Shown here piece after piece: positions 14,445 to 36,700 of a stretch of 64,000 bases of DNA. This stretch comes from Rhodococcus marinonascens NBRC 14363 (GTDB lineage Bacteria; Actinomycetota; Actinomycetes; Mycobacteriales; Mycobacteriaceae). Numbering within the stretch: position 1 is the stretch's first letter; every line of letters starts with the position of its first letter. The position numbers were made by a program, and so were the translations under genes. Location of the stretch: positions 124,001 through 188,000 of the forward strand of contig NZ_BCXB01000002.1 in the NCBI RefSeq assembly GCF_001894885.1, given 5' to 3'. The notes under the pieces were generated by a model that did not search any database, was not told where the DNA came from, and saw nothing but the letters and a program-made list of their open reading frames with translations.

Positions 14445-16307
14445 CTATTCGACGGTGACCGACTTCGCGAGGTTACGCGGCTTGTCGACGTCGTAGCCTC
14501 GGGTCTGCGCAACCTCGGCCGCGAAGACCTGCAACGGCACCGTCGACAGCAACGGTTGCAGCAGCGTCGGCGCCGCCGGGATCTCGATCAGGTGGTCGGC
14601 GAACGGGCGCACGGCCTCGTCTCCTTCCTCCGCGATCACGACGGTCCGCGCACCCCGGGCCTGAATCTCCCGGATGTTGCTGAGCAGCTTCGAGTGCAGC
14701 ACCGCCCGGCCCTTCGGCGACGGCATCACGATGATCACCGGCAGACCGTCTTCGATCAATGCGATCGGTCCGTGCTTGAGCTCACCGGCCGCGAACCCCT
14801 CGGCATGCATGTACGCCAGCTCCTTGAGCTTGAGCGCACCCTCCAGTGCCACGGGGTAGCCGACGTGACGGCCCAGGAACAACACCGTCGACGACGACGC
14901 CAACTCTCGCGCCAGGGCACGCACCGGTTCGACAGTCCCGAGGACCCGGCGGACCAGATCAGGCATCGCCTCGAGGTCTGCGTACTCGCGCGCGACCTCG
15001 TCTGGATACTTGGTACCGCGCGCTTGGGCGAGCGCCAGGCCGACCAGGTAGTTCGCTGTGACCTGGGCGAGGAAAGCCTTAGTTGACGCGACACCGATCT
15101 CCGGACCTGCTCGGGTGTAGAGGACGGCGTCGGCTTCGCGAGGGATCTGGGCACCATTCGTGTTGCATACCGCCAGGACCCGCGCCTTCTGATCCTTGGC
15201 ATGGCGCACGGCTTCGAGGGTGTCCGCCGTCTCACCGGACTGAGAGATCGCCACGACCAGCGTGGACCGGTCCAACACCGGGTCGCGGTACCGGAACTCG
15301 CTGGCCAGTTCCACCTCGACAGGCAGGCGCGTCCAGTGCTCGATCGCATACTTCGCGAGTAGACCCGAGTGGTAGGCGCTGCCACAGGCGACGACGAAGA
15401 CTTTATCGACGTCGCGCAGCTCCTGATCCGACAGTCGCTGCTCGTCGAGGACGATTTTCCCGTCCGCGAAGTGACCGAGCAGGGTGTCCGCGACAGCGGC
15501 CGGTTGTTCCTCGATCTCCTTGAGCATGAAGTAGTCGTGGCCGCCCTTCTCTGCGGCCGCAAGATCCCAGTCGATGCGGAACGGTCGGCCCTGCGCCTCC
15601 GAACCGTCGAAGTTCAGAATCGAGTACCCATCGGCTGTGATCACCACAACCTGATCTTGACCCAGTTCCACCGCGTCGCGGGTGTGCTCGATGAACGCCG
15701 CGACGTCGGAACCGAGGAACGTCTCTCCCTTGCCGACACCGATGACCAACGGCGTCGAGCGACGCGCCGCGACGATGGTATCCGGGTGGTCAGCGTGCGC
15801 GAAGACAAGAGTGAATGCACCCTCGAGCCTCCGCAGCACGCTCAGCGCGCTCGCGACGAAGTCACCAGCAGTCTCGCCCGCGGCGTACGCGCGGGCGACG
15901 AGGTGTACCGCGACCTCGGTGTCGGTGTCGCTGGCGAACTCGACTCCGTCGCGTTCGAGTTCTGCCCGCAGCGGGGCGAAATTCTCGATAATGCCGTTGT
16001 GCACCACGGCGACCGTGCCGTTCGCATCACGGTGCGGGTGCGCATTCCGGTCGGTGGGGCGACCGTGCGTCGCCCATCGCGTATGGCCGATCCCCGTACT
16101 ACCGGTGAAGGCCGGTGCGCCTATCTCGTCGAGTTCGGCCTCGAGATTCGCCAGCCGACCGGCCTTCCGCTCGACCGTCATCCCACGGTTCCCGTCGAGA
16201 ACGGCAATTCCGGCAGAATCGTATCCGCGGTATTCCATCCGCCGCAAAGCTTCCACCACAACAGTCAGAGCCTGACGGTGGCCGACGTATCCCACGATTC
16301 CGCACAT
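14445..16307 (-). CDS. glmS: Glutamine-fructose-6-phosphate aminotransferase (isomerizing)
   Basis: 620-aa enzyme making glucosamine-6-phosphate for peptidoglycan and mycothiol. The nucleophilic Cys2 is exposed in MCGIVGYVGHRQA; the N-terminal glutaminase half (1 to about 240) contains GIGHTRWATHG, and the C-terminal half has two SIS domains with SQSGETADT and the terminal DVDKPRNLAKSVTVE. The next step is GlmM, encoded 4.5 kb away. The promoter must lie in 16308-16428, shared with the divergent hydrolase-fold gene. Confidence 0.97.
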   Translation of the reverse strand: MCGIVGYVGHRQALTVVVEALRRMEYRGYDSAGIAVLDGNRGMTVERKAGRLANLEAELDEIGAPAFTGSTGIGHTRWATHGRPTDRNAHPHRDANGTVAVVHNGIIENFAPLRAELERDGVEFASDTDTEVAVHLVARAYAAGETAGDFVASALSVLRRLEGAFTLVFAHADHPDTIVAARRSTPLVIGVGKGETFLGSDVAAFIEHTRDAVELGQDQVVVITADGYSILNFDGSEAQGRPFRIDWDLAAAEKGGHDYFMLKEIEEQPAAVADTLLGHFADGKIVLDEQRLSDQELRDVDKVFVVACGSAYHSGLLAKYAIEHWTRLPVEVELASEFRYRDPVLDRSTLVVAISQSGETADTLEAVRHAKDQKARVLAVCNTNGAQIPREADAVLYTRAGPEIGVASTKAFLAQVTANYLVGLALAQARGTKYPDEVAREYADLEAMPDLVRRVLGTVEPVRALARELASSSTVLFLGRHVGYPVALEGALKLKELAYMHAEGFAAGELKHGPIALIEDGLPVIIVMPSPKGRAVLHSKLLSNIREIQARGARTVVIAEEGDEAVRPFADHLIEIPAAPTLLQPLLSTVPLQVFAAEVAQTRGYDVDKPRNLAKSVTVE

Positions 16308-16428: not shown

Positions 16429-17265
16429 GTGGCGCCGAATCCGAAGACCCTGGCCCGTGAACTGTCCAAGCGGGGACCGCACCGCGTACTGAGGGGCGAC
16501 CTCGCCGTGGCGGGACAGCCGGGAGTCGTATACACGCCGGAATCAGGCTTCGACCTGCCCGCCGTCGCATTCGCCCACGGCTGGATGACCGGCGCCGACC
16601 ACTATCGGAAGACGCTCGAACACCTCGCTTCCTGGGGAATCGTCGTGGCTGCCCCCGACAGCGAACGCGGTCCTCTGCCCTCCCACCTGGGTCTCGCTAC
16701 AGACCTGAAAGCCACAATCGACATCTGCGTGGGTGTGCGCCTCGGTCCCGGTCAGATCAGCGTGCACCCCGGTCGGGTGGCTCTCGCGGGTCACGGAATG
16801 GGTGCGGGAGCGGCTGTCCTCGCCGCCGCCCGGCGGGACGTGTCTGCGGTCGCCGCACTCTTCCCGGCACCGACTGCCCCGAAGGCCGAGAACTATGCGT
16901 CCGAGATCACAGCTCCGGCGCTCATCGTCGCCGGCACCGACATCGACACCATGAACAGCAACGCCAAGTCCCTCGCCGCGGCGTGGGGCGGAGAGCAGAT
17001 CCTCCGCGCCGTCGATGACGCGTCGGATTCCGGTCTCATCGAAGGTCGCCGATTGCTCGGCGCACTCGGGGTCGGTGGCTCCGAGCGGAAGACCCAGCAG
17101 ACCACACGAGCCCTGTTGACCGGCTTCCTGCTCTATCGCCTTCTCGGAGACAAGAAGTACGAGATGTTCGCGGAGCAAGATGCCGAACTCCCCCACACGA
17201 CGCTCGTCGATCCGCACGAGGAGCGCGCGGGCGCCGATTTCGAAGGCCTGCGCTCCCACATCTGA
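16429..17265 (+). CDS. Alpha/beta-hydrolase-fold protein lacking the catalytic serine (Rv3438-like)
   Basis: 278 aa, related to chlorophyllase/PET-hydrolase-like dienelactone hydrolases: AFAHGWMTGADHYRKTLEHLASWG and VVAAPDSERG are diagnostic. The nucleophile elbow reads AGHGMGAGAAV, with Gly where GHSMG has the catalytic Ser, and the segment normally GASH-like reads DASDSG, so the His also seems lost; the acid Asp (GTDID) remains. The protein is therefore probably not a serine hydrolase. An ATG at 16306 would overlap glmS; GTG at 16429 gives 278 aa, close to the ~280 aa I recall for Rv3438, its positional counterpart. Divergent from glmS. Confidence 0.75.
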   Translation: MAPNPKTLARELSKRGPHRVLRGDLAVAGQPGVVYTPESGFDLPAVAFAHGWMTGADHYRKTLEHLASWGIVVAAPDSERGPLPSHLGLATDLKATIDICVGVRLGPGQISVHPGRVALAGHGMGAGAAVLAAARRDVSAVAALFPAPTAPKAENYASEITAPALIVAGTDIDTMNSNAKSLAAAWGGEQILRAVDDASDSGLIEGRRLLGALGVGGSERKTQQTTRALLTGFLLYRLLGDKKYEMFAEQDAELPHTTLVDPHEERAGADFEGLRSHI

Positions 17266-17359
17266 AGTAGGTCCGTCGTCGCAACCGGCTACCGCGATCC
17301 GATACCCTCGTTCGGCCCTGAGACAGAACTCAGGACTTCACCCACAAGAGCGGGACTTT

Positions 17360-17836
17360 ATGAGCAAGGCCCACAGCGCCATTCGAGCGCTGGCGGCGAC
17401 GGCGCTCGCTGCGGCGAGCGTTATCGGATTGACCGGTGTCGCGTCGGCACAGGAGGCGCAGCCGCCTGTCCTCCGCCCCGATGTATTCAAGCGGGGCGGC
17501 ATCTTGGGAGACGATGTCGTCCACTTCCTCAGTAGAGGATGCGGCGGCGTGGTCCATACGAGAATTCAGGACCACCCCGAAGAGCCGGGAATGGCGACCA
17601 TCACCCTCACCTCTCAGGGAAGAGCCGCCCCGGGCTGCGACGCCACCATGAAGGCGATCTGGGTCGACGGGGTTTTCCCATTCGAGCACGTACAGTATCT
17701 CCCGCTCGACGGCGGGGTCGGCCCGCAGGAGCCGGTCAGCTACCAAGTACCCATCGGGGCCGGAGTAAGTCTCATGTCAATCGGCTCTGCCTCACACATC
17801 GCCAAGGGCGTGTCCCACTACATCTACATCAGCTAG
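17360..17836 (+). CDS. Small secreted protein of unknown function
   Basis: 158 aa with a clear Sec signal peptide (about 1-30, ending GVASAQEA) and a mature part of about 128 residues. Two cysteines (RGCGG and APGCDA) could form one disulfide. No recognised domain; a short beta-rich secreted protein is the best description. ATG at 17360; the open frame continues upstream through the preceding gene but the signal peptide fixes the start. It follows the hydrolase-fold gene by 94 bp on the same strand. Confidence 0.7.
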   Translation: MSKAHSAIRALAATALAAASVIGLTGVASAQEAQPPVLRPDVFKRGGILGDDVVHFLSRGCGGVVHTRIQDHPEEPGMATITLTSQGRAAPGCDATMKAIWVDGVFPFEHVQYLPLDGGVGPQEPVSYQVPIGAGVSLMSIGSASHIAKGVSHYIYIS

Positions 17837-17986: not shown

Positions 17987-18238
17987 CTACACCAGCCAGC
18001 TACGCGGACGGTAGAATTCGTCATCGTCTTCGACTGGTTCGCGCCTCGGTGCAGAAGACCTCGATACCGACTCTGCCTCGGGTCGGGGAACATGTCGGGG
18101 AACATTGGGTCCGGCACGACGGTGATCGGCCGCCACGTCGTCTCTCACCCGGCGTTCGGCGATCCGCTCCCGAAACACCTCCAGGTCGGCTCTCATCTGG
18201 GTACGGTGCGCGCGCAACTGTGCGGCACGATCACTCAC
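17987..18238 (-). CDS. 83-aa protein, third gene of the ESX-associated operon
   Basis: Small hydrophilic, Arg/Asp/Glu-rich protein: an N-terminal helix (SDRAAQLRAHRTQMRADLEV) is followed by a disordered segment ending DDDEFYRPRSWLV. No signal peptide, membrane helix or known domain. Its GTG start overlaps the stop of the 694-aa gene by 4 bp (GTGA), the main reason to accept it as real. It could be a dedicated chaperone or a co-secreted partner of that protein, but this is inference. Competing frames in the same stretch lack such coupling. Confidence 0.55.
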   Translation of the reverse strand: MSDRAAQLRAHRTQMRADLEVFRERIAERRVRDDVAADHRRAGPNVPRHVPRPEAESVSRSSAPRREPVEDDDEFYRPRSWLV

Positions 18239-20319
18239 AGGGGGCCGGCCTCAGCCAACTCGGCGCCGCTGTCGCCTGTTTCCGTGCCGAGCTCAGATTC
18301 GGGGATCGGCAACGATTCCCGTAACGGCTGAGGCTCCGAAGACGAGTCGGGAGCCGATTCGTGCTGTGTCACGATCAACGGTTGCGGCGCACCTGCGGGC
18401 GCTTCGTCCGGCGCGGGAAGCAGTACCTCCTCCTGCTGGGGTGCACAGACCGCGGGGCTGGCTTCGAGCACCGACTCTGCAGTCGACCCTTCGCCTTGGT
18501 CCCCTCCGATGCCGGGATCCTGCGAATCGGGCACCACGTCCGGTGTCGCCTCGGAAGGCACCTCGCTCGCACCGGTTTCCTCCACGATGCGAGGCAGTCC
18601 GTCCGGGCCGATCTCGACGCCGAACCTGGACGTTCCGCCCTGCCCGTCAGTCATCTCGAGGTGAATGCCCCGATCGTCCTCGTCGATCGAGAGCGTCCAC
18701 GACTTTCCGTCGATGATCAACTCGAGATTCTTCTCGCGAACTGCTCCGGCGAGGCCGTCGTGAACCTCTTCTTCGCGTGAATCACCAAGTTCGTCGCGGA
18801 GATCTTCGTCGTGCGTCCTAGCGAGCCCCGACACGGCGTCGTCGATCAGCGGGCGAATGATCGAACCGAGTTCGCCCAGACCTGCTGCCAGCCCCTGTCG
18901 CACATCGGCGGAATCACCCGAGACGGGTGCAGCTCCGACACCGGGGAACGCGCCCAACCCCGGGAGACCGCCCCAGCCGGGTACGCCACCCGGTGTGGGA
19001 GCGAGGCTCGGACCAGTCGGCGCGACCGGCCCCGGCACAACGGACGGGGACGCAGCAGGTGCGGTCGAGGCAGGGGCAGAACCCCCGCCGCCACCGGGCT
19101 GACCGGCCTGCGCGGCTGTAGTGCCCGCACACCCGGGATCCGGCGGCGCCGCGATCGGTCCCGGGTGGGGTGCTGGTGCGCTCTCAGCGTTGGGAACTCC
19201 GTTGCAGTCGACTATCGGTCCTTGATCAGCGATGCCCTCAGGCCGGATACCCTTCTGCGCCTCGATGGTTCGCGCCTCGGCGATCGCGCTGTCGTAGGCC
19301 GCGTCGACTGCTTCGGAACAGTCCTCGCACGCCGCCGCGAATTCCCGCTGCTTCTCCTCGTACACCCACCGGAAATTTGAGGCGAACCAATCCTTGACGA
19401 TTCCGGCCGCCCGCCGCACGACGTCGTCTCGGTCGAGTCGGCGAAGATTGCCACTGCCGCCGTCCTTGTACAGGCCGTTTATGTGGCGGTAGTCGTCGTC
19501 CGCGAGTTCCGGGAACCAGTACGACGCATCTTCCATACAATCTTTCGCACGGGAATTGTCGCCGTCCTTGCCATTGACATAGATGTCGGCGAGGACATCG
19601 ATTTGCGCGGCGCTGTACCCACCGACGGTGGATTGATGCAGTGACACCACCTTGAATGCCTTACTCGTCACCGCAGCACTCAGTGTCAGGTTGGCCTCGA
19701 ACAACACCTCGGCGAGACCGTCCAGCCGGGCGAGACCGGCCTCGGCCCTCGCGTTCTGCCGATCCGCCGTCTCCATCGCTGCCGTAGCGGCGATCCCGCT
19801 CCACCCCGAGCGCACCGTGGACAGACACTTCTCGTGTTCGCTCAGTTCGGAGCGCCCAGCGTCGAGACTGCGGCCGAGGATGTCGAGGTCGTGGCCGAGT
19901 GACTGCAGGCGCATCCCCCGCTCGGCGTCGAACCGGGCGTAGTAGTCGGTGAGCAACCTGCTCTCGTACCCCAGCTTTCTTGCCGCCGGAAGGAACAGTT
20001 CGAACAACTCGAGACCGCGCGCGCCCAGGTCGAGCATGTCATCGGGCTCATTCAGGGAATCCGGACGAATCCGCTCCTCCAACTCGAGGCGCGATGCGTT
20101 CGCTTTCTGCGCGTCGTCTCCGTCCCGAAGGAGTTTGGTGTAGCGCTGATCGGCGGCCGGCGTCTGGTCACGCTCACCGAGCCGGTACTCGTCCAGATAG
20201 GGCTGCCACGAAGCCTCATCGCCCTGACGTGCGGCCGCCCATGCCCGCAGGAGCTGCACCTTGTACTCGCGGCTCAGGTTCGGATCGTCGATCAACGCCC
20301 TCGGATCGGTACTCACCAT
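18235..20319 (-). CDS. 694-aa WXG-containing, Pro-rich ESX-associated protein (Rv3439c-like)
   Basis: Residues 1-360 are largely helical and include RSGWSGIAATA (W173-S-G175) between two long helices, as in WXG100 helical hairpins, plus CEDC and other cysteines. Residues 375-470 form a Pro/Gly/Ala linker; 475-585 form a compact acidic domain (NLELIIDGKSWTLSIDEDD); the rest is acidic and disordered. No signal peptide or transmembrane helix, so export, if any, would be by type VII. Position and composition correspond to the Ala/Pro-rich Rv3439c. ATG at 20319 overlaps the upstream 102-aa gene by 7 bp; GTG at 20316 is an alternative. Enzymatic activity not recognised. Confidence 0.75.
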   Translation of the reverse strand: MVSTDPRALIDDPNLSREYKVQLLRAWAAARQGDEASWQPYLDEYRLGERDQTPAADQRYTKLLRDGDDAQKANASRLELEERIRPDSLNEPDDMLDLGARGLELFELFLPAARKLGYESRLLTDYYARFDAERGMRLQSLGHDLDILGRSLDAGRSELSEHEKCLSTVRSGWSGIAATAAMETADRQNARAEAGLARLDGLAEVLFEANLTLSAAVTSKAFKVVSLHQSTVGGYSAAQIDVLADIYVNGKDGDNSRAKDCMEDASYWFPELADDDYRHINGLYKDGGSGNLRRLDRDDVVRRAAGIVKDWFASNFRWVYEEKQREFAAACEDCSEAVDAAYDSAIAEARTIEAQKGIRPEGIADQGPIVDCNGVPNAESAPAPHPGPIAAPPDPGCAGTTAAQAGQPGGGGGSAPASTAPAASPSVVPGPVAPTGPSLAPTPGGVPGWGGLPGLGAFPGVGAAPVSGDSADVRQGLAAGLGELGSIIRPLIDDAVSGLARTHDEDLRDELGDSREEEVHDGLAGAVREKNLELIIDGKSWTLSIDEDDRGIHLEMTDGQGGTSRFGVEIGPDGLPRIVEETGASEVPSEATPDVVPDSQDPGIGGDQGEGSTAESVLEASPAVCAPQQEEVLLPAPDEAPAGAPQPLIVTQHESAPDSSSEPQPLRESLPIPESELGTETGDSGAELAEAGPL

Positions 20320-20621
20320 CGCACCTCGCCGATGTTCGCGGAGAAGTTCGTGTCCGTTCCCGAGTACCGCGCCGCGGCTGCCTCGAGCGCGCGGCCGACC
20401 GACTCGGCGTCCGCGGCCCATTCCCCGAAGACAACTCCCACGACACCGAGTGCGTCGCGCAAAGCCTCGCCCTTAGCGGCATAGTCGCGACCCGCCTGCG
20501 CCCCGCAGAACTCGAGTCGATCGAGATCGATCGTCTGCTGTCTCAGAACCTCCGCGGACCGCACCATTCTCGCCCCGGCGTTAATCACCGCCGTGACATC
20601 CACCTCGAGTCCATCGCTCAT
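20313..20621 (-). CDS. 102-aa ESX-substrate-like protein (EspC/Rv3440c type)
   Basis: Size and architecture match small EspC-like ESX proteins: two predicted helices (about 8-38 and 42-85) followed by RYSGTD, a YxxxD type VII secretion signal (Y86-D90), and a short tail. There is no WXG between the helices, so it would be the signal-bearing half of a pair whose WXG half could be the next gene. First gene of the operon 102 aa - 694 aa - 83 aa, all overlapping. Located just 3' of glmM, as Rv3440c is. Confidence 0.75.
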   Translation of the reverse strand: MSDGLEVDVTAVINAGARMVRSAEVLRQQTIDLDRLEFCGAQAGRDYAAKGEALRDALGVVGVVFGEWAADAESVGRALEAAAARYSGTDTNFSANIGEVRW

Positions 20622-20705
20622 TGCCCCACCCTCCCTCGGCGACCTACTGCATTAGACGCGACAGCGCATCGATCGGTTCCCCTGTCCGACCGGCGCCCCG
20701 TGATC

Positions 20706-20780
20706 GATTACACCGCGACCGACTACACCGCGACCGACTACACCGTGACTGATTACACGGAGACTGATTACACGGAGGCG
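20706..20780. repeat. Five tandem 15-bp repeats spanning the glmM stop codon
   Basis: Five units at 20706-20720, 20721-20735, 20736-20750, 20751-20765 and 20766-20780, consensus GATTACACCGCGACC with few changes. Read on the glmM strand every unit carries an in-frame stop (TAA, TAA, TAG, TAG, TAA counted outward), and the first is the actual glmM stop. Confidence 0.9.
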
Positions 20781-25654: not shown

Positions 25655-25939
25655 TCAGAGCCAAGCAGCCGCGTTCCGGTCTTCCGCACTCTGCATGTCG
25701 ATGGCGCCGTCCTGGACGACCTTCGAGATCGTCTGCAGAACCTGGAGCAGGTCGTTGTGTGCGCTGTTCCACCGCGCCTGGGAGGCCTGGTAGTTCTCCT
25801 GAGCGCCACTCTCCCACTGCGCGACGAGTCCCTGCACGTAGCTCTGGAGCTCCTCGTGGGTTTCGCGCAGCTTGCCTTCGTTCGACTTGATGTCGCTCGC
25901 GAGGGCCTGCAGCTCGGCAAATCCATACTTCAAAGACAT
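25655..25939 (-). CDS. esxT: ESX-4 WXG100-family substrate EsxT
   Basis: 94-aa Esx protein forming a helical-hairpin dimer with EsxU for export by ESX-4. The turn reads QWESGAQENYQ: W42 is at the expected place, but the WXG glycine is Ser44, so the motif is relaxed. No C-terminal YxxxD/E signal is present; EsxU carries one. Identity as esxT rests on position (last gene of the operon, after esxU) and length. 48 bp downstream of esxU and followed by a good terminator. Confidence 0.88.
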   Translation of the reverse strand: MSLKYGFAELQALASDIKSNEGKLRETHEELQSYVQGLVAQWESGAQENYQASQARWNSAHNDLLQVLQTISKVVQDGAIDMQSAEDRNAAAWL

Positions 25940-25987: not shown

Positions 25988-26305
25988 CTAGATGTCGAGT
26001 GAACCCGAATTTCCGGCCGAATGGATTGCATCCTGGTTCGCCTGTTCAGCGGCGTCGTAACCCTTGCCGTTCTCACGGATCTTCACCGCGATGTCGGCCA
26101 GCGACTCCTGCTGCCTGCGCGAGGCATCGGCGTAGCGGACCATCAGTGCCTGGAAAGCATTCTGCGCTCCACCGGCCCACGCCGACGAGGACTCCTCGCA
26201 ACGACCCTTGAGTCCGTTGATGGTGGACTGCAACTGCGCGTTCACCGTCTCGACATGGTTGGCCGCAGCCTCCATCTGCCCGACATCGGTAACAACTCCC
26301 GCCAT
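25988..26305 (-). CDS. esxU: ESX-4 WXG100-family substrate EsxU
   Basis: 105-aa Esx protein with a canonical WXG turn (SSAWAGGAQNAF, W43-A-G45) and the secretion signal YDAAE (Y83 to E87) after the second helix. It is the probable signal-bearing half of the EsxT-EsxU dimer recognised by EccC. The frame opens at 26359, but ATG at 26305 (MAGVVTDVGQMEAAA) gives the family length. The 135-bp gap upstream could hold its own promoter. Confidence 0.9.
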   Translation of the reverse strand: MAGVVTDVGQMEAAANHVETVNAQLQSTINGLKGRCEESSSAWAGGAQNAFQALMVRYADASRRQQESLADIAVKIRENGKGYDAAEQANQDAIHSAGNSGSLDI

Positions 26306-26440
26306 TGTGACTCCTTCTGTTTCTAGGTGTGGCGGCCCCCGCTGGACTGCCCGATCCACCCCTACACAAGATTGGACGCATCAACAGCCCAATCGGTTCC
26401 ACCGAAGTGGAAGATATTCTAACGGCGAGAATCTCTACGA

Positions 26441-27930
26441 TCACTCTGCGATGACCAGTGACCGCACGACCTCCTCGCATTCGCTGGAAATCGAGTCCCA
26501 ATCCCCGGACAGGAACTGACAGCCGACGCTCACCTGCAAACCATCGTCGACGAGCACATGCCATGCCACCGACGAACTTTCGTCGGGAAACTCACTGTAC
26601 GAGATGCCGAGTCGGTCACCGAAAACGACGTCACGCTCCACTTCCCCGAACAGGCCGGGGAGGCCGCGCTCAGCAATTTCCGCCGATAGCCCCGTCGCCA
26701 CTTCGTCGTAGCCGGCACCATCCCGAACCACATTCTGCGCGATGATAATTCGTTTGTCGGATCCGCCGCCAGGGACCAACTCCACCCGATTGCTCGTTGA
26801 CGTCGGTGCAGATGCCTCCCGCTGCGACCACCCGTCCGGCAGCGTCACGCGAACACCGTCCAGGCCGAGGTCCGCTGTCCCTGCGGTCGGAGCGGTGCTC
26901 GCGGTCGCGATCGGTGTCCGTGCTGCATCTCCGTCCAGGGCGCGTACGGATTCACTCGTGCGATCTGACTCCCTGAAAGCAAACGCCAGAATCGTCGCGA
27001 GGACGACTGCCACCAATGCGGCCACCGCCGCAAGAGTCGGCCATGAGCGCGTTCGACGACCGCGTTCGGATTGCTGCAATGCCGGTCCGAGCCAGTTCGA
27101 TTGCGGTACAACCATGTTCGGCACCACTTCGAGTCCCTCACGCGCGCCTGATTCGAGTGCGCGGGCGATCTCGTCGCCGGCGATGCAATGAACCTGGACA
27201 TTCGAGGCAAACGCGGCGAGCGCGGCGTCACGCATCGATTCCCAATTGGACGTGTCGAGGGTGCCAGTCACGAGGATTCCGTCGACGGGCCGATCACCGC
27301 AGGCCCGCTTCCCGAGTTCCACGATCGCCTCGGCCTGCCCCTCCGACGCCTCGTCGGCGCAGAGCATCGAATCGTGCTCGCACGCGATGACCCGGTAACC
27401 ACCGACCTCACCGACCACGTAACTGGCAGTTGCGCCCACGGTCCGGCATTCGAGCACTACCCATCGGCTGCCAGGGGCCGAGACGCCGACGGGGACCGAG
27501 ACGCCGACGGGGACCGAGACGCCGCTTGGGACCGAGACACTGTCGGCAGCCGCGACGGCGACGGGCACCAGAATGGTGCCGGACGCGACCCTCGCGCCTG
27601 CATCGGCGAGAATGTTCCGCCGCGCGGAATCCCATTCCGTCGGATGAGACAGCACCGCAGTCCCGATCGGCAGCGACTCCCCGGCGGCATCGATCCCGAA
27701 GCGTAGGACGGCGACCAGCGCATCCGACACCGCAACGACACCGCCGTCGACATCGACGTACTCGTCGTCGACGAAGCAGACGGGCGTCATCTCGTGATCG
27801 GCCTCGGCTGCCACGAACGCGGATACCGATTCGTCGCTCCCGGCGCGAACCTTGGGGAACGTCGCCGACGTTGTACGCCGGCCACAGGACCACATGCAGC
27901 ATTCCGTGAGGTGAATCGAGACCATAGCCG

Positions 27931-27934
<4 letters not shown>
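26441..27934 (-). CDS. Type VII secretion-associated protein, Rv3446c family (TIGR03931)
   Basis: About 497 aa. The N-terminal ~300 residues are a degenerate Hsp70/actin-like fold, then one membrane helix (AAVAALVAVVLATILAFAF) and an extracytoplasmic domain of ~170 aa (VRVTLPDGWSQREA... WHVLVDDGLQVSVGCQ). Always found between eccC4 and esxU; function unknown. The GTG at 27934 overlaps the eccC stop by 4 bp; ATG at 27925 is an alternative. A block of three imperfect VPVGVS-type peptide repeats (27480-27533) lies in the middle of the N-terminal domain. Confidence 0.85.
27480..27533. repeat. Three tandem 18-bp repeats inside the Rv3446c-family gene
   Basis: Unit GAGACGCCGACGGGGACC at 27480-27497, 27498-27515 and (less exact) 27516-27533. 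In the leftward frame it encodes repeated V-P-V-G-V-S hexapeptides, keeping the frame. Confidence 0.85.
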
Positions 27935-31953
<4,019 letters not shown>

Positions 31954-32253
31954 TAGCCCAGTCCCCCCATAGCTCCAACGAACCCCGATCCCGCGACAGA
32001 TCCGATCCCGGAAACCCCGGGCACCCCCTGCCCTCGGGCCGCGACGTTCGAGGCTAGCTCATGGCGGACCGTCCACAGATTAGAGGTCCATCGGTCGCGC
32101 GTGAGCCCCTCCGTCCGCCCACATGCTGGTGACCACGACCGTCGTGACGTAGGGTTCCCGTGATCAAATCGGACGACGATCTGTGACCGATCGTCGATCA
32201 TGTCGCCGCGGCGCAGCGGGGTTGTCGCGCCAAAGAAGTTGGGGGAAATACCA
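31954..32253. other. Divergent eccC-eccD intergenic region
   Basis: 300 bp without a credible gene between the oppositely directed eccC and eccD, so it must hold both promoters. An inverted repeat GACGATC-N7-GATCGTC (32175-32195) lies about 60 bp before the eccD start and could be an operator. No clear -10/-35 pair was identified. Confidence 0.6.
32175..32195. promoter_or_regulatory. Dyad upstream of eccD (possible operator)
   Basis: Perfect inverted repeat GACGATC-TGTGACC-GATCGTC in the eccC-eccD divergent region. A regulator is not known; called only from symmetry and position. Confidence 0.35.
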
Positions 32254-33726
32254 GTGTCCATCGCCCACGACGAATCGCGAGGGACGACGTCGTCCGTCCG
32301 TCAGAGCGCCGCCACCGAGTTGTGCCGGATCACCGTGCTGTCGACACATTCGCAGGTCGACATGGCCGTGCCATTCGGCGTGCCCCTCGCCATCCTCATT
32401 CCCGGGATCGTGGACACCATCCGCAGCCATCGCGGCACCAACGACTTCGACGACTCGCTCGAGCAGTACGAACCCAGCGAGTGGGTGCTCGCGAAGATCG
32501 CCCAGTCTCCGCTGTCGAGCACTCTGACATTGCACGAGCACGGAATTCGCGACGGCGACCTGCTGATCTTGGAGAGTGCGCAGGCCAGCGCCCCGCCACC
32601 CCTGTTCGACGACATCATGTACAACGTCGCGATCGCCGACGCCGAGAGCGACCGCGAGTGGACGCGAGGTGCCGCGCGGGTCGTGGGCTCCGCCGCTGCC
32701 GTATTAGGCATCGTCGTCGGCTCGTACGCACTCCTGTGGTCCGAGTCCGGAACGACGGGGTTCCTCGGGGCGGGTTGCGCTCTCTTGATGGGAATACTGT
32801 TCCTGATCGCCGGGTCGGTCACCGGTCGCGTCTATCAAGACGCAGCAGGCTCCGTCGTCCTCAGCGGGTGCGCTGTTCCGCTCGCGTTTGCCGCGGGCAT
32901 GCTCTTCGTGCCCGGTGATCTCGGCGCCCCGCACGCCCTGCTTGGACTCGTTCTGGCAGGCACCACCGCAGTCCTCGCACTGAGGCTGGGCGGTGTCGGA
33001 CTGAGACTGTTCACCGGGTTGTCGGCGATTTCCCTGTTCGGCTCTCTCGCCGCGCTCGTAGCGATGCTGACAGCCAATTCGGTGGCCTCGGTCGGAGCGG
33101 GGGTTGTTGCGGCCTCGTTGATCGGCCTGGCCCTCTCTGCCCGAATGTCGATCCTGCTGGCGAAGCTTCCGCTGCCGCCTGTCCCGGCGCCGGGTACCTC
33201 GGTCGATCCCTCCGAGGTCGATCCGGACGACGACGTGACGATGCCCTCGTTCGATTCTCTGGCACAACGCGCGGCGCGTGCCCGCAAGTACCTCACCGGT
33301 CTGGTCGGCGCGATGACTATCCTCGTCGTGGCCGGTGCCCTGATGGCTGTTCATCCCGGTGCGCACGCCGGGATCTCCTGGTCGGGTGCGTCACTTGCCG
33401 TCGCGGCGGCTGCAACCCTGATGTTCCGAGGACGGACCTACAGCAGCGCCGAGCAGGCTGTCCCGCTGATCGCAGGCGGGGTAGCGATCCTGGTCCTGTT
33501 ACTCACCGCCGCGGCCGTTGCCGTGCCCGACATCGCCATCGCCTTGTTCGCAGCCGCAATTGCGTTCGCCGTCGGTGCGTTGGTACTCGGAATCCTGGCC
33601 CCTAGTCAGGAGTTCTCACCCGTCATGCGGCGTATCGCCGAACTGATCGACCTGGCATTGATCGCGTCGATCGTTCCCCTGGTGTGCTGGGTGACCGGCC
33701 TCTACTCGCTGATGCGCGGACTGTGA
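32254..33726 (+). CDS. eccD4: ESX-4 membrane channel protein EccD
   Basis: 490 aa. An N-terminal ubiquitin-like (YukD) domain (about 1-110, including VLSTHSQVDMAVPFGVPLA) is followed by about eleven hydrophobic helices from residue ~135 on, the architecture of EccD, which lines the ESX membrane vestibule. ATG at 32200 is possible, but GTG at 32254 has a strong GGGGGAA site 7 nt before it. The stop overlaps the mycP start by 4 bp (GTGA). Confidence 0.93.
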   Translation: MSIAHDESRGTTSSVRQSAATELCRITVLSTHSQVDMAVPFGVPLAILIPGIVDTIRSHRGTNDFDDSLEQYEPSEWVLAKIAQSPLSSTLTLHEHGIRDGDLLILESAQASAPPPLFDDIMYNVAIADAESDREWTRGAARVVGSAAAVLGIVVGSYALLWSESGTTGFLGAGCALLMGILFLIAGSVTGRVYQDAAGSVVLSGCAVPLAFAAGMLFVPGDLGAPHALLGLVLAGTTAVLALRLGGVGLRLFTGLSAISLFGSLAALVAMLTANSVASVGAGVVAASLIGLALSARMSILLAKLPLPPVPAPGTSVDPSEVDPDDDVTMPSFDSLAQRAARARKYLTGLVGAMTILVVAGALMAVHPGAHAGISWSGASLAVAAAATLMFRGRTYSSAEQAVPLIAGGVAILVLLLTAAAVAVPDIAIALFAAAIAFAVGALVLGILAPSQEFSPVMRRIAELIDLALIASIVPLVCWVTGLYSLMRGL

Positions 33727-35114
33727 GGCGCCGGCCCACCCACCTCGTCCTGGTCACCGCGGTAGTGTCCATCACCGCGATCATGGGTCAGGGCGGGGCT
33801 TCCGCTGTGGTTCCCGCTCCCGTCGACGCCGGACTCGTTCCGCCGCCTGACAACACGCCGGTCGAACAGCGCCGACAGTGCAATGGCGCAGTGAACGTAC
33901 CGGACGGCCCGGACGTCCAGGTCGCCCAACGCGACCTCGACTTCGAGTCGGTCTGGCCCATCACCCGCGGGCAAGGTCAGATGGTCGCGGTAATCGATAC
34001 CGGAGTCTCGCGACATCCGCGCCTTCCCGATCTCATCGACGGTGGCGACCTCGTGGCGAACGAGACGGGGACGACCGATTGCGACGCCCACGGTACCCTC
34101 GTCGCCGGCCTGATCGGCGCCAAACAGGCTCCAGGTTCAGGATTCTCGGGTGGCGCACCGGATTCCCAGATCCTCTCCATCCGCCAAACGAGCAGTGCAT
34201 ACAGTGCGGTAGGCCAGGTCGATGAGGTCGACGATGCGGGAAACTCGGTCGGTGGGTACGGAAACGTCAAAACGATGGCCGCAGCGATCCGGCTAGCCGC
34301 CGACCGGGGCGCAACCGTCATCAATATCTCCGAGGTCGCCTGTAAAACGGCCGCTGAGGGAATCGGTAGCGGCGACCGGTATCTGGGGTCGGCCGTGAAG
34401 TACGCGGTCACGGAGATGGACGCCGTAGTTGTGGCCGCTGCTGGCAACTTCGGTTCCGGCGAGTGCAAAATCCAGAATCCCCCAGTCGACCCGCTCCGGC
34501 CGGAAGCCGACCTGTGGGACTCGGTCGGCACCATTGCGAGCCCCGCCTGGTACGACGACTACGTCCTCACGGTCGGATCCGTCGATATGAATGGATCACC
34601 GAGCGATTTCAGCCTGGCCGGTCCGTGGGTCGACGTCGCTGCGCCCGGAAGCGGTATCACCTCGCTGCATCCAACGACCGGCGCCCTGACGAACACGGTA
34701 TACAGCGCACAGGGCAATGCGAGCGCCGTGGAAGGGACGAGTTTTGCGGCGCCCTTCGTGTCGGCGACGGCCGCGCTGGTCCGGTCGCGATTCCCGCTGT
34801 TGTCTGCGCAGCAGGTCATGGCCCGGATCGAAGCCACGGCGCACGCCCCGGCAGAAGGCTGGAATCCGTCGGTCGGTCACGGCATCATCGATCCGCTCGC
34901 AGCGGTCACCGCCGATATTCCGCTCGAGGGAGTTGCTCTCCAGCAGCCTCGTTCGGTTGAGATCGATGCCCTTCCTCCTGCCACCCTCCCGGATCAACGA
35001 CCTCGTGACGTCGCCTTGGTGGCTGCCGGAACCCTCGGCACTCTCCTTTTGCTCGGCGTCCTGGCGTCGTTCCCTATCCGTCGGCGTTTCCAGTCCGCAA
35101 CCGAGAGAGGCTGA
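33723..35114 (+). CDS. mycP4: Mycosin MycP (ESX-4 membrane-anchored subtilisin-like protease)
   Basis: 463 aa. Signal peptide/propeptide (1 to about 60), subtilase domain with the triad D92 (VAVIDTGV), H123 (CDAHGTLVAG) and S340 (EGTSFAAPF), oxyanion Asn242 (AAAGNFG), and a C-terminal membrane helix (about 435-455) ending in RRRF. Cysteines near RRQCNG, TDCDAH, VACKTA and GECKI can form the disulfides known in mycosins. Caps and stabilises the ESX pore on the periplasmic side. GTG at 33723 couples to eccD. Confidence 0.95.
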   Translation: MRRRPTHLVLVTAVVSITAIMGQGGASAVVPAPVDAGLVPPPDNTPVEQRRQCNGAVNVPDGPDVQVAQRDLDFESVWPITRGQGQMVAVIDTGVSRHPRLPDLIDGGDLVANETGTTDCDAHGTLVAGLIGAKQAPGSGFSGGAPDSQILSIRQTSSAYSAVGQVDEVDDAGNSVGGYGNVKTMAAAIRLAADRGATVINISEVACKTAAEGIGSGDRYLGSAVKYAVTEMDAVVVAAAGNFGSGECKIQNPPVDPLRPEADLWDSVGTIASPAWYDDYVLTVGSVDMNGSPSDFSLAGPWVDVAAPGSGITSLHPTTGALTNTVYSAQGNASAVEGTSFAAPFVSATAALVRSRFPLLSAQQVMARIEATAHAPAEGWNPSVGHGIIDPLAAVTADIPLEGVALQQPRSVEIDALPPATLPDQRPRDVALVAAGTLGTLLLLGVLASFPIRRRFQSATERG

Positions 35115-35184: not shown

Positions 35185-35238
35185 CTCAGTTGGAACCGGA
35201 CGCTCAGTTGGACCCGAATACTCAGTTGGACCCGGACG
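35185..35238. repeat. Three tandem 18-bp repeats spanning the eccB stop codon
   Basis: Units at 35185-35202, 35203-35220 and 35221-35238, consensus CTCAGTTGGACCCGGACG. On the eccB strand each unit encodes a xxGSN-stop pattern, so the eccB stop TGA is followed by two more in-frame TGA codons 18 and 36 nt on. Confidence 0.9.
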
Positions 35239-36700
35239 CCACCGGTGCGGGGTTGAGATCGGGAGTCACCCCGTCGTGCGCAACCAGCGCCGACGACTTC
35301 CCCAGCGACGGTCCCGGAGCCAGGAGTCCGAGAATCTGCCACGGTGCGAGAGGTTGCGTGCCCACTAAACCCAATGCCTTGGCGGAGTCTTCATCGGGGA
35401 TGCCGAACCTGACTCCCGTGTCCGCGACGAAGAAGGTGCTGTCGCGTCGCGTGCTCGTGGGCTCGATCCCCGTGGATTGGACGAATCCACTGGCACCCGG
35501 CCGAACATAGACGGAGTCCGCTTTGTCACCGGCGCCGTCCGCCTGCGCCAGCCTGACCGGGCGGGCGTCGTCCGGGATCGGGAGCGTGCGCCCCGCGAAG
35601 AGTGTCAGCGCTGCCGCGGGACCACTCGAGTCCGTGTCGTCCGCGGCACGGAGCGGCTTCCAGGTCACGCAACTCACTGGACTTCCCGAAGCGTCGACGA
35701 TCTCCGGAGCCGACTCCGGAAAATGTTTCACCGCGATCTGTTCCACCGAAGGAATCCGCTTGATGGCATCGGGCGTCACGCTGGACATCTCGGTGTCACC
35801 GTGGGAGTTCGAGAGGAAGATCAGGTTCGCGACCGCCGAACTGATCTTCTGGATTCCATCCGGCAGTACAACGTAGTGCGCGGTCTCGGAAGGGAGCCGA
35901 GACTGGAAGACCGAGCCCACGACCTTGTCCTGCAGCGCGTATCGCGGCTGATCGTCGGCCCCGGGGATGATCGGGGTCGTGAGTGGCAGCACCTCGGGAA
36001 CGGCGTTGACAAACCCTGCACTGACCGGCCGGGGCAGGGCCCCTTCGAGACCCAGCGCACGGGTGACCGCCGGATCGTCCAGATCGATCTTCGCGCGCTT
36101 GCCGTCGTACATCAAGTACGACGCATCGCGTGTCGAGACAAGTAACCCTTGATTCTCTGCCAGGGCCGCGCCGTCCTCGATGCCTTCCGTGTCACCGATG
36201 ATGATCGATGTCGTGACGGAACGATTTCCGTCGGCGGCGATCGAGTCGCACACGGTCCACGGGGTCTTCGCCCCGGGGTCTCCCGCCGGCAATGCCGACG
36301 GTGCGCCGGGGATCCCGACGAGCGCTCCGCGAGGTCGCGTATCGATCTCGGATTCCTTGACGGTCACCGGGTTCTCGGACTTTCCGATGATCAGCCTGGC
36401 GGACGCGAGGTTGAGCACGGGTCGAAGCATGTCTCCCATCACAACGAACATTGCGCCCGAATCCTTGCCGACGACTATCGACGCGTTGCCGATCTTGTCC
36501 TGCGGGCGGAACAGGGCCAGCGCCGCACACGCGGCGAGTCCGAGCGAGGCGATCACGACTCCCACGACGAGTGCACGCGACTGTGACCGCATGGGGTCGT
36601 GGAGCATTCGAACGTCGCGACGCACCAACGCGTGCTCCATCCGCCTGATCAGAAAGCGATACCCGTTGACCTGCCACCGAGTGGTGGGTGTTGAAGCCAT
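35222..36700 (-). CDS. eccB4: ESX-4 membrane protein EccB
   Basis: 492 aa. A short cytoplasmic N-terminus (STPTTRWQVNGYRFLIRRMEHALVR, typical of EccB) precedes one membrane helix (about 43-65, RALVVGVVIASLGLAACAALAL) and a long periplasmic domain with repeat modules and two conserved cysteines (TPWTVCD and SPVSCVTW) expected to pair. Anchors the periplasmic ring of the secretion pore. Transcribed opposite to eccD-mycP and eccE. The stop is embedded in a tandem repeat. Confidence 0.95.
   Translation of the reverse strand: MASTPTTRWQVNGYRFLIRRMEHALVRRDVRMLHDPMRSQSRALVVGVVIASLGLAACAALALFRPQDKIGNASIVVGKDSGAMFVVMGDMLRPVLNLASARLIIGKSENPVTVKESEIDTRPRGALVGIPGAPSALPAGDPGAKTPWTVCDSIAADGNRSVTTSIIIGDTEGIEDGAALAENQGLLVSTRDASYLMYDGKRAKIDLDDPAVTRALGLEGALPRPVSAGFVNAVPEVLPLTTPIIPGADDQPRYALQDKVVGSVFQSRLPSETAHYVVLPDGIQKISSAVANLIFLSNSHGDTEMSSVTPDAIKRIPSVEQIAVKHFPESAPEIVDASGSPVSCVTWKPLRAADDTDSSGPAAALTLFAGRTLPIPDDARPVRLAQADGAGDKADSVYVRPGASGFVQSTGIEPTSTRRDSTFFVADTGVRFGIPDEDSAKALGLVGTQPLAPWQILGLLAPGPSLGKSSALVAHDGVTPDLNPAPVASGSN

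What the first reader, a model, noticed from the sequence alone, without database searches (positions are those of the whole stretch)
17987..20621. ESX-like / WXG-Pro-rich / small-protein operon next to glmM: candidate ESX-4 effector module
Three leftward genes overlap by 4-7 bp. The first (102 aa) has EspC-like helices and a YxxxD signal (YSGTD). The second (694 aa) carries W173-S-G175 within a helical region, a Pro/Gly linker and a distinct C-terminal acidic domain. The third (83 aa) could be a chaperone or partner. There is no Sec/Tat signal, yet the layout is that of a type VII pair (signal protein plus WXG partner) with a large cargo. The locus sits 5 kb from a complete ESX-4 and corresponds in position to Rv3440c-Rv3439c. 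That the pair is an ESX-4 substrate is inference.
Basis: partly seen in the sequence, partly recalled or inferred. Interest (0 to 1): 0.72.

Follow-up and report, generated by a model that had tools for sequence, protein, structure and literature searches.

The report
ESX-4-linked secreted protein pair operon
Three small overlapping genes next to a cell-wall gene look like a matched pair of proteins, plus a helper, that a bacterial export machine called ESX-4 carries out of the cell; related bacteria that lost ESX-4 have lost the large protein of the pair too.

Summary
The three overlapping leftward ORFs are real and belong to an old, fast-diverging operon (P1-P2-P3), found between glmM and glmS in Rhodococcus and many relatives. 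P1 (102 aa) is an EspC-like helical hairpin ending in YxxxD. P2 (693/694 aa) has a WXG100/PPE-like helical bundle with W173-S-G175 in the hairpin turn, then a Pro/Gly linker, a small beta domain and an acidic tail ending in LAEAGPL. P3 (83 aa) ends in YRPRSWLV and matches no family.

Three results favour ESX-4. The genome's only EccB is this ESX-4's. P1-P2 copies sit inside ESX-4-like loci in four other genomes. Three genomes without EccB (two Rhodococcus, one of genus g10) have no intact P2, while the 36 same-genus genomes with EccB and a retrievable locus have a P2 match without stops; the two Rhodococcus losses look independent.

Best explanation: an EspC/EspA-like substrate pair of ESX-4. 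Export and pairing are inferred; no complex could be modelled. A bolder reading, feedback on SigM/ESX-4 through Rip1, is not excluded.

The parts
20313..20621 (-). P1: 102-aa EspC-like helical hairpin protein
20352..20366 (-). YSGTD motif (residues 86-90) of P1
   Evidence: motif in 17 of 23 rows
18235..20319 (-). P2: 694-aa protein (693 aa from GTG at 20316)
19645..19908 (-). WXG100-like helical hairpin of P2 (residues 138-225)
19795..19803 (-). W173-S-G175 in the hairpin turn
18895..19224 (-). Pro/Gly/Ala-rich, low-confidence linker (residues 366-475)
18580..18729 (-). small predicted five-stranded domain (residues 531-580)
18238..18267 (-). conserved C-terminal tail GAELAEAGPL of P2
17987..18238 (-). 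P3: 83-aa protein, GTG start overlapping P2 by 4 bp
17990..18019 (-). C-terminal tail EFYRPRSWLV of P3
20768..22117 (-). glmM, upstream neighbour
14445..16307 (-). glmS, downstream landmark
25655..25939 (-). WXG100 gene a of the ESX-4 locus (one of the esxT/esxU pair; called 'esxU' in my scripts)
25988..26359 (-). WXG100 gene b of the ESX-4 locus (called 'esxT' in my scripts)
27931..31953 (-). eccC4
32200..33726 (+). eccD4
33684..35114 (+). mycP4 (subtilase)
35222..36700 (-). eccB4, the only EccB found in this genome
36810..38462 (+). eccE4

Best explanation
P1 and P2 are a co-translated EspC/EspA-like substrate pair of the ESX-4 type VII secretion system. Proposed mechanism: the helical hairpin of P1 (YxxxD at its C-terminal end) packs against the WXG hairpin of P2; together they form the two-part signal read by the EccC4 ATPase; ESX-4 moves the pair out of the cytoplasm; the Pro/Gly linker and acidic C-terminal part of P2 then act in or beyond the envelope. 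P3 most likely binds P2 before export. Shown here: ORFs, conservation, predicted hairpins, WXG homology, ESX-4 linkage and loss together with ESX-4. Inferred: heterodimer, recognition, export, site of action and the role of P3.
Against: No secretion or binding data for this pair. P1 fails the PF10824 cut-off (17 against 23.5 bits). Foldseek has no match at E up to 0.001 for either model, and its best rows for P2 are unrelated; the PPE41 match is tied with BAR domains, and helical bundles score well in general. The P1 profile against PDB sequences ranks designed coiled coils first, Esx proteins only at E 0.3-1.3. 92 of 289 genomes with EccB have no P2 match. In G105 and G013, without EccB, a P1-like ORF persists. 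G231 (75% complete) and G241 (83% complete, E 5.6e-4) have a P2 match but no EccB found. The embedding ESX loci were called ESX-4 by gene order and similarity to this one, not by comparison with other ESX types.
Confidence: 0.78

Rival explanations
1. P1-P2 is an ESX-4 accessory that stays in the cytoplasm or at the inner membrane (adaptor or chaperone for the WXG100 pair) and is not itself exported.
For: Would give the same linkage and loss together. No export was measured.
Against: YxxxD/E at the C-terminal end of a hairpin (17 of 23; 18 of 18) and a WxG partner with a long disordered cargo are marks of the substrates listed in PMC6107294 (passages seen).
Confidence: 0.13
2. A T7SS-delivered antibacterial toxin (P2) with P3 as its immunity protein.
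For: Large cargo with variable C-terminus followed by a small gene; in G222 P3 survives beside a P2 remnant.
Against: No toxin domain in Pfam or NCBIfam for P2, nor in Pfam for 10 longer relatives; the C-terminal part is mostly disordered with a 50-residue beta domain; the tail is conserved, not polymorphic; no P3 was found in the four g29 loci inspected.
Confidence: 0.05
3. A glmM/glmS-associated cell-wall protein operon with no ESX role; the helical hairpins are incidental.
For: Lies between glmM and glmS in 19 of 20 fetched loci; the 20th is cut at a contig end.
Against: Copies inside ESX loci away from glmM; loss with ESX-4 while glmM and glmS stay; WXG100 homology.
Confidence: 0.04

Closest known systems
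EspC/EspA/EspD and EspF/EspE/EspH of ESX-1
   Same: A roughly 100-aa YxxxD/E protein paired with a larger WxG protein with variable C-terminus, and a third associated gene; motif assignments and EspH-EspE binding from PMC6107294 (passages seen)
   Different: Linked to ESX-4; in this operon the third protein has no YbaB match; distinct conserved C-terminal tails; P1 is below the PF10824 cut-off
Rv3440c-Rv3439c of M. tuberculosis
   Same: Same position after glmM (locus tags recalled); four g29 loci carry P1-P2 there. Rv3439c is 'Ppr2', which bound the Rip1 PDZ domain in a yeast two-hybrid screen (PMC6963305, passage seen)
   Different: P2 profile similarity in g29 is weak (E 3e-7 to 2e-18 within single loci); tail there is CEIAADELPQAG-like; no P3 found in the four loci
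ESX-4 WXG100 pair EsxT/EsxU
   Same: Small helical T7SS substrates linked to ESX-4 (PMC9401124: listing, start of abstract, passages; PMC11791044: abstract, outline, passages)
   Different: P2 is a large protein with cargo; P1 is EspC-like rather than a clear WXG100
PE25-PPE41 / EspB
   Different: No PE or PPE Pfam match; EspG-type chaperone binding not tested; EspB resemblance is recalled only

Membership tests
T7SS substrate pair (YxxxD + WxG) | Helix-turn-helix with WxG in the turn (partner protein) | tested here: met
   (prediction and profile)
T7SS substrate pair (YxxxD + WxG) | YxxxD/E at the C-terminal end of a helical hairpin | tested here: met
T7SS substrate pair (YxxxD + WxG) | Physical heterodimer | not testable with these tools
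   no complex prediction offered
T7SS substrate pair (YxxxD + WxG) | Secretion dependent on an ESX system | not testable with these tools
   genetic linkage and loss together only
EspC family PF10824 | Score over the curated cut-off | tested here: not met
   17 against 23.5 bits for P1
EspC family PF10824 | Full-length alignment to the profile | tested here: met
   residues 1-98 on 1-99 of 100, E 0.008
EspACD / EspEFH triad | Third protein a YbaB-like chaperone | tested here: not met
   no YbaB match in 17 P3 rows at E up to 0.1; sequence profiles only, no fold predicted
PPE family | PPE-type helical bundle | tested here: inconclusive
Orthologue of Rv3440c-Rv3439c | Direct sequence orthology | not tested
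   M. tuberculosis sequences not fetched; synteny in unnamed g29 genomes only

The most novel reading that the evidence does not exclude
P2 is a secretion-coupled feedback regulator of ESX-4. Three published facts close a loop: SigM induces esx-4 genes (PMC8593097, passage), the Rip1 protease cleaves the anti-SigM factor RsmA (PMC10202637, passage), and the position-matched Rv3439c bound the Rip1 PDZ domain in yeast two-hybrid (PMC6963305, passage). If the PDZ domain faces outside, as that review of site-2 proteases states for DegS and E. coli RseP, a protein without a Sec signal can reach it only if exported; ESX-4 export of P2 would supply that route and let secretion status control SigM. 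P2's conserved C-terminal tail would be the candidate contact in Rhodococcus.
Probability: 0.1. Interest if true: 0.85.

Novelty: new variant of a known kind. Interest (0 to 1): 0.6.

Why it matters
ESX-4 is widespread and often regarded as the ancestral type VII system (recalled), yet few of its substrates are known. A widely conserved EspC/EspA-like pair tied to ESX-4 by location and by loss with it would suggest that the EspC/EspA way of export is not particular to ESX-1. It would also give a single-T7SS model (Rhodococcus) in which to test it, and a route by which the Rip1-binding protein Rv3439c could get outside.

Tried and rejected
Shine-Dalgarno explanation of the P2 tail (the tail DNA might be kept as ribosome site of P3): rejected, because the codons vary synonymously and the tail persists where no overlapping P3 was found, as in L040, L048 and L053. 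Charge pairing of basic P3 with acidic P2: rejected, P3 pI runs from 4.6 to 11.1 in 17 rows. P3 tail as a general tag of EspC loci in this genome: a first pattern was one base short; the corrected one found only P3. LAEAGPL-stop as a wider tag: 13 of 28 genus genomes, one site each, all at the P2 locus by coordinates (in G222 at the remnant); reversed control 0. C-terminal PDZ ligand as a family-wide role: weakened, the g29 tails end in G plus a polar or charged residue. BAR-domain matches of P2: taken as generic long-helix matches. Sequence search of P1 and P2 alone against PDB: no match; the A1 profile's best rows are designed coiled coils.

Biases: the ORF picker preferred a 4-bp overlap (22 of 24 for P1/P2; two of these picks, L047 and L054, are doubtful) and a W-L tail for P3, and three P3 candidates without it (L050, L051, L055) were left out of A3, so 17 of 17 W-L tails is not independent; rows found otherwise (L143, L145; L040) carry the same tail. 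L047 and L054 were left out of A2 (P2 tail 19 of 22 rows, 19 of 24 with them). L047 was left out of A1, and for L054 another ORF replaced the picker's choice. L036 is the same contig as L003 by length and was not used in the alignments. Of the genomes matched, I fetched 20 of 32 loci and 12 of the order-level matches. L074, L075, L133 and L146 were fetched but not analysed.

Literature: Rv3439c in 5 and Rv3440c in 1 open-access papers; in the three of these six that I looked into (one passage each) no T7SS link; pair-style terms gave 0 papers. A locus-tag search led to MAB_3747c in PMC11768086 (passages), raised with sigM, esxT and esxU and tied to one of two type VII-linked annotations; that paper's text and table map the accessions differently, and identity of MAB_3747c with P1 or P2 is my inference. 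The Clark 2018 SigM/ESX-4 paper was not held. PMC6917791 (passages) added nothing.

Full report
OBSERVATION. The window lies in a 4.9-Mb genome of genus g1. On the minus strand, P1 (20313-20621), P2 (18235-20319) and P3 (17987-18238) overlap as stated. P2 has an ATG start giving a 7-bp overlap and a GTG three bases on giving 4 bp; 4 bp is the rule elsewhere, though my picker favoured it. Pfam names glmM, glmS, rpsI, rplM, EccB, EccD, EccE, an FtsK/SpoIIIE ATPase (EccC4), a subtilase (MycP4) and two WXG100 genes around it. P1, P2 and P3 have no NCBIfam match. In Pfam P1 has a full-length but sub-threshold match to EspC, PF10824 (17 against 23.5 bits), and P2 and P3 have none.

FAMILY. Relatives of P2 were found in 32 of 101 family genomes with the single sequence, in 200 of 301 with the 22-row profile A2, and in 66 of 298 order genomes at E up to 1e-6. 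In 20 fetched loci (of the 32 genomes matched) P2 lies between glmM and glmS in 19, in a few with other genes between; the 20th runs off its contig before glmM. In 12 order-level loci that I fetched (families f14 and f2), 8 have P1-P2 beside glmM, three of them with a second P2, 2 have it in an ESX locus and 2 elsewhere. The bodies diverge fast (19-33% identity of P1 to the window outside its close group), while certain points are fixed.

FIXED POINTS. P1: YxxxD/E in 17 of 23 rows (shuffle expectation 1.8), D or E at its last position in 22 of 23. P2: W in 21 of 22, G in 17 of 22. In loci not used for the alignments, 18 of 18 P1 have YxxxD/E near the end and 19 of 19 P2 have W-x-G in register; these loci were chosen by the A2 profile and aligned with it, so the P2 count is not wholly independent. 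P2 ends in [LIV]x[EG]xG[PA][LM] in 19 of 22 rows, with synonymous codon changes that argue for selection on the protein. P3 ends in a W-L tail in the 17 rows kept, a biased count (see Tried and rejected).

LINK TO ESX-4, 1: ONE MACHINE. The own genome has one EccB (0 of 14 controls) but four other EspC-family proteins over the PF10824 cut-off (over it in 1 of 14 controls), some followed closely by another gene. If any is exported by a type VII system, that would be this ESX-4. The assembly is 100% complete by estimate but in 156 contigs.

LINK 2: EMBEDDING. In G154 (L139) and G109 (L140), genus g23, a second P1-P2 pair lies between mycP4 and eccB4 of a locus with the gene order of ESX-4 (eccC 63-64% identical). 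Two further extra copies in G022 (L141, L142) are not near ESX genes in the pieces fetched, so 2 of 4 extra copies examined. In G328 and G301, family f2 (L170, L175), P1-P2 directly follows an eccC (52% identical) and two WXG100-like genes. I call these loci ESX-4; I did not compare them with other ESX types.

LINK 3: LOSS TOGETHER. EccB was found in 289 of 301 genomes. Of the 12 without it, 5 are at least 90% complete: G222, G245, G105, G013, G034. In G222 (L120) ESX-4 is gone except a piece of eccE4 and the end of one WXG100 gene; P1 is gone, and P2 is reduced to a frameshifted remnant of its C-terminal part beside P3 (it still scored, E 5.8e-29 with four stops). In G245 (L121) only the end of eccE4 beside part of the WXG100 gene remains; P1, P2 and P3 are gone, and an ORF that looks like a TnpB-type transposase gene (my reading, not searched) lies there. 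In both, the two neighbours after the WXG100 genes, rplM, rpsI, glmM and glmS are kept. In G105 (L122, genus g10) no EccB is found, P2 is gone and a P1-like ORF stays. In the same two genera, genomes with EccB and a retrievable locus have a P2 match without stops in 24 of 24 and 12 of 12 (in G193, 79% complete, the open frame is only 187 aa). G091 and G290 have EccB and no P2 but also no glmM at the threshold used, and G272 has none of the three; they were set aside as not informative. Fisher p = 1.1e-4 for 36 of 36 against 0 of 3, ignoring relatedness. On a four-gene tree of 16 genomes G222 groups with G023 and G195, which keep both systems (split support 0.98), and apart from G245 (0.997), so the two Rhodococcus losses look independent. 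Against: G013 keeps a P1-like ORF without EccB and, with G034, comes from genera where P2 is mostly absent; G231 (75% complete) and G241 (83% complete, E 5.6e-4) have a P2 match without EccB. Also, 92 of 289 genomes with EccB have no P2 match. Part of this is sensitivity: G029 and G239 (g29) are not among the matches, yet P1 and P2 are there on inspection.

MECHANISM. Best reading: P1 and P2 pair as EspC with EspA or EspF with EspE, the YxxxD and WxG hairpins forming the signal for EccC4, and ESX-4 exports the pair. In ESX-1, YxxxD/E is carried by EsxB, PE35, EspC, EspF, EspJ, EspB, and WxG by EsxA, PPE68, EspA, EspE, EspK, EspB; EspH binds EspE, and EspH/EspD are proposed as YbaB-like chaperones (PMC6107294, passages). 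P3 holds the position of such a helper but shows no YbaB match, so the chaperone role is a guess. P1-P2 is therefore said to work like EspC/EspA, not filed as a member of EspACD.

BOLD READING. Rv3439c, the protein at this place in M. tuberculosis (locus tag recalled), is Ppr2, a two-hybrid partner of the Rip1 PDZ domain; [quoted passage not shown] Rip1 cleaves RsmA, the anti-SigM factor (PMC10202637, passages; PMC10449499, passage), and SigM induces esxU/esxT (PMC8593097, passage). An exported P2 could therefore report secretion to SigM. No step of this was tested here; the g29 tail does not end like a PDZ ligand, and Rip1 was not looked for in this genome.

VERDICT. It extends a known kind (EspC/EspA-like pairs) to ESX-4 in many genera of the order, with its own tails and third gene.

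Noticed in passing
window 20705-20773: A 15-bp tandem repeat (4.6 copies, 88% match) starts at the end of glmM and fills about half of the gap before P1.
   Followed up: no
L071 9760-11248 (own genome C2): Another EspC-family gene over the PF10824 cut-off is followed by a 409-aa ORF whose end resembles NlpC/P60 cell-wall hydrolases (by eye only): a further candidate ESX-4 cargo.
   Followed up: no
L173, L176 (family f14): P1-P2 pairs are duplicated in tandem between glmM and glmS, with 800-1070 aa P2 proteins and a different C-terminal end.
   Followed up: partly
L120 7525-9336 and L121 16771-17400: Related ORFs of mobile-element look lie in the ESX-4 deletion of G222 and in the P1-P2-P3 deletion of G245 (by eye); possibly one kind of element drove both losses.
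   Followed up: no
window 26441-27949: 502-aa protein between eccC4 and the WXG100 genes has no Pfam match and diverges fast (46-59% identity in close Rhodococcus, about 30% elsewhere), at the same place in the loci where it was found.
   Followed up: no
window 17180-17836: Plus-strand ORF facing the operon; a start within it would have a signal-peptide-like N-terminus (by eye); no Pfam match, only a short piece matched in close relatives.
   Followed up: no
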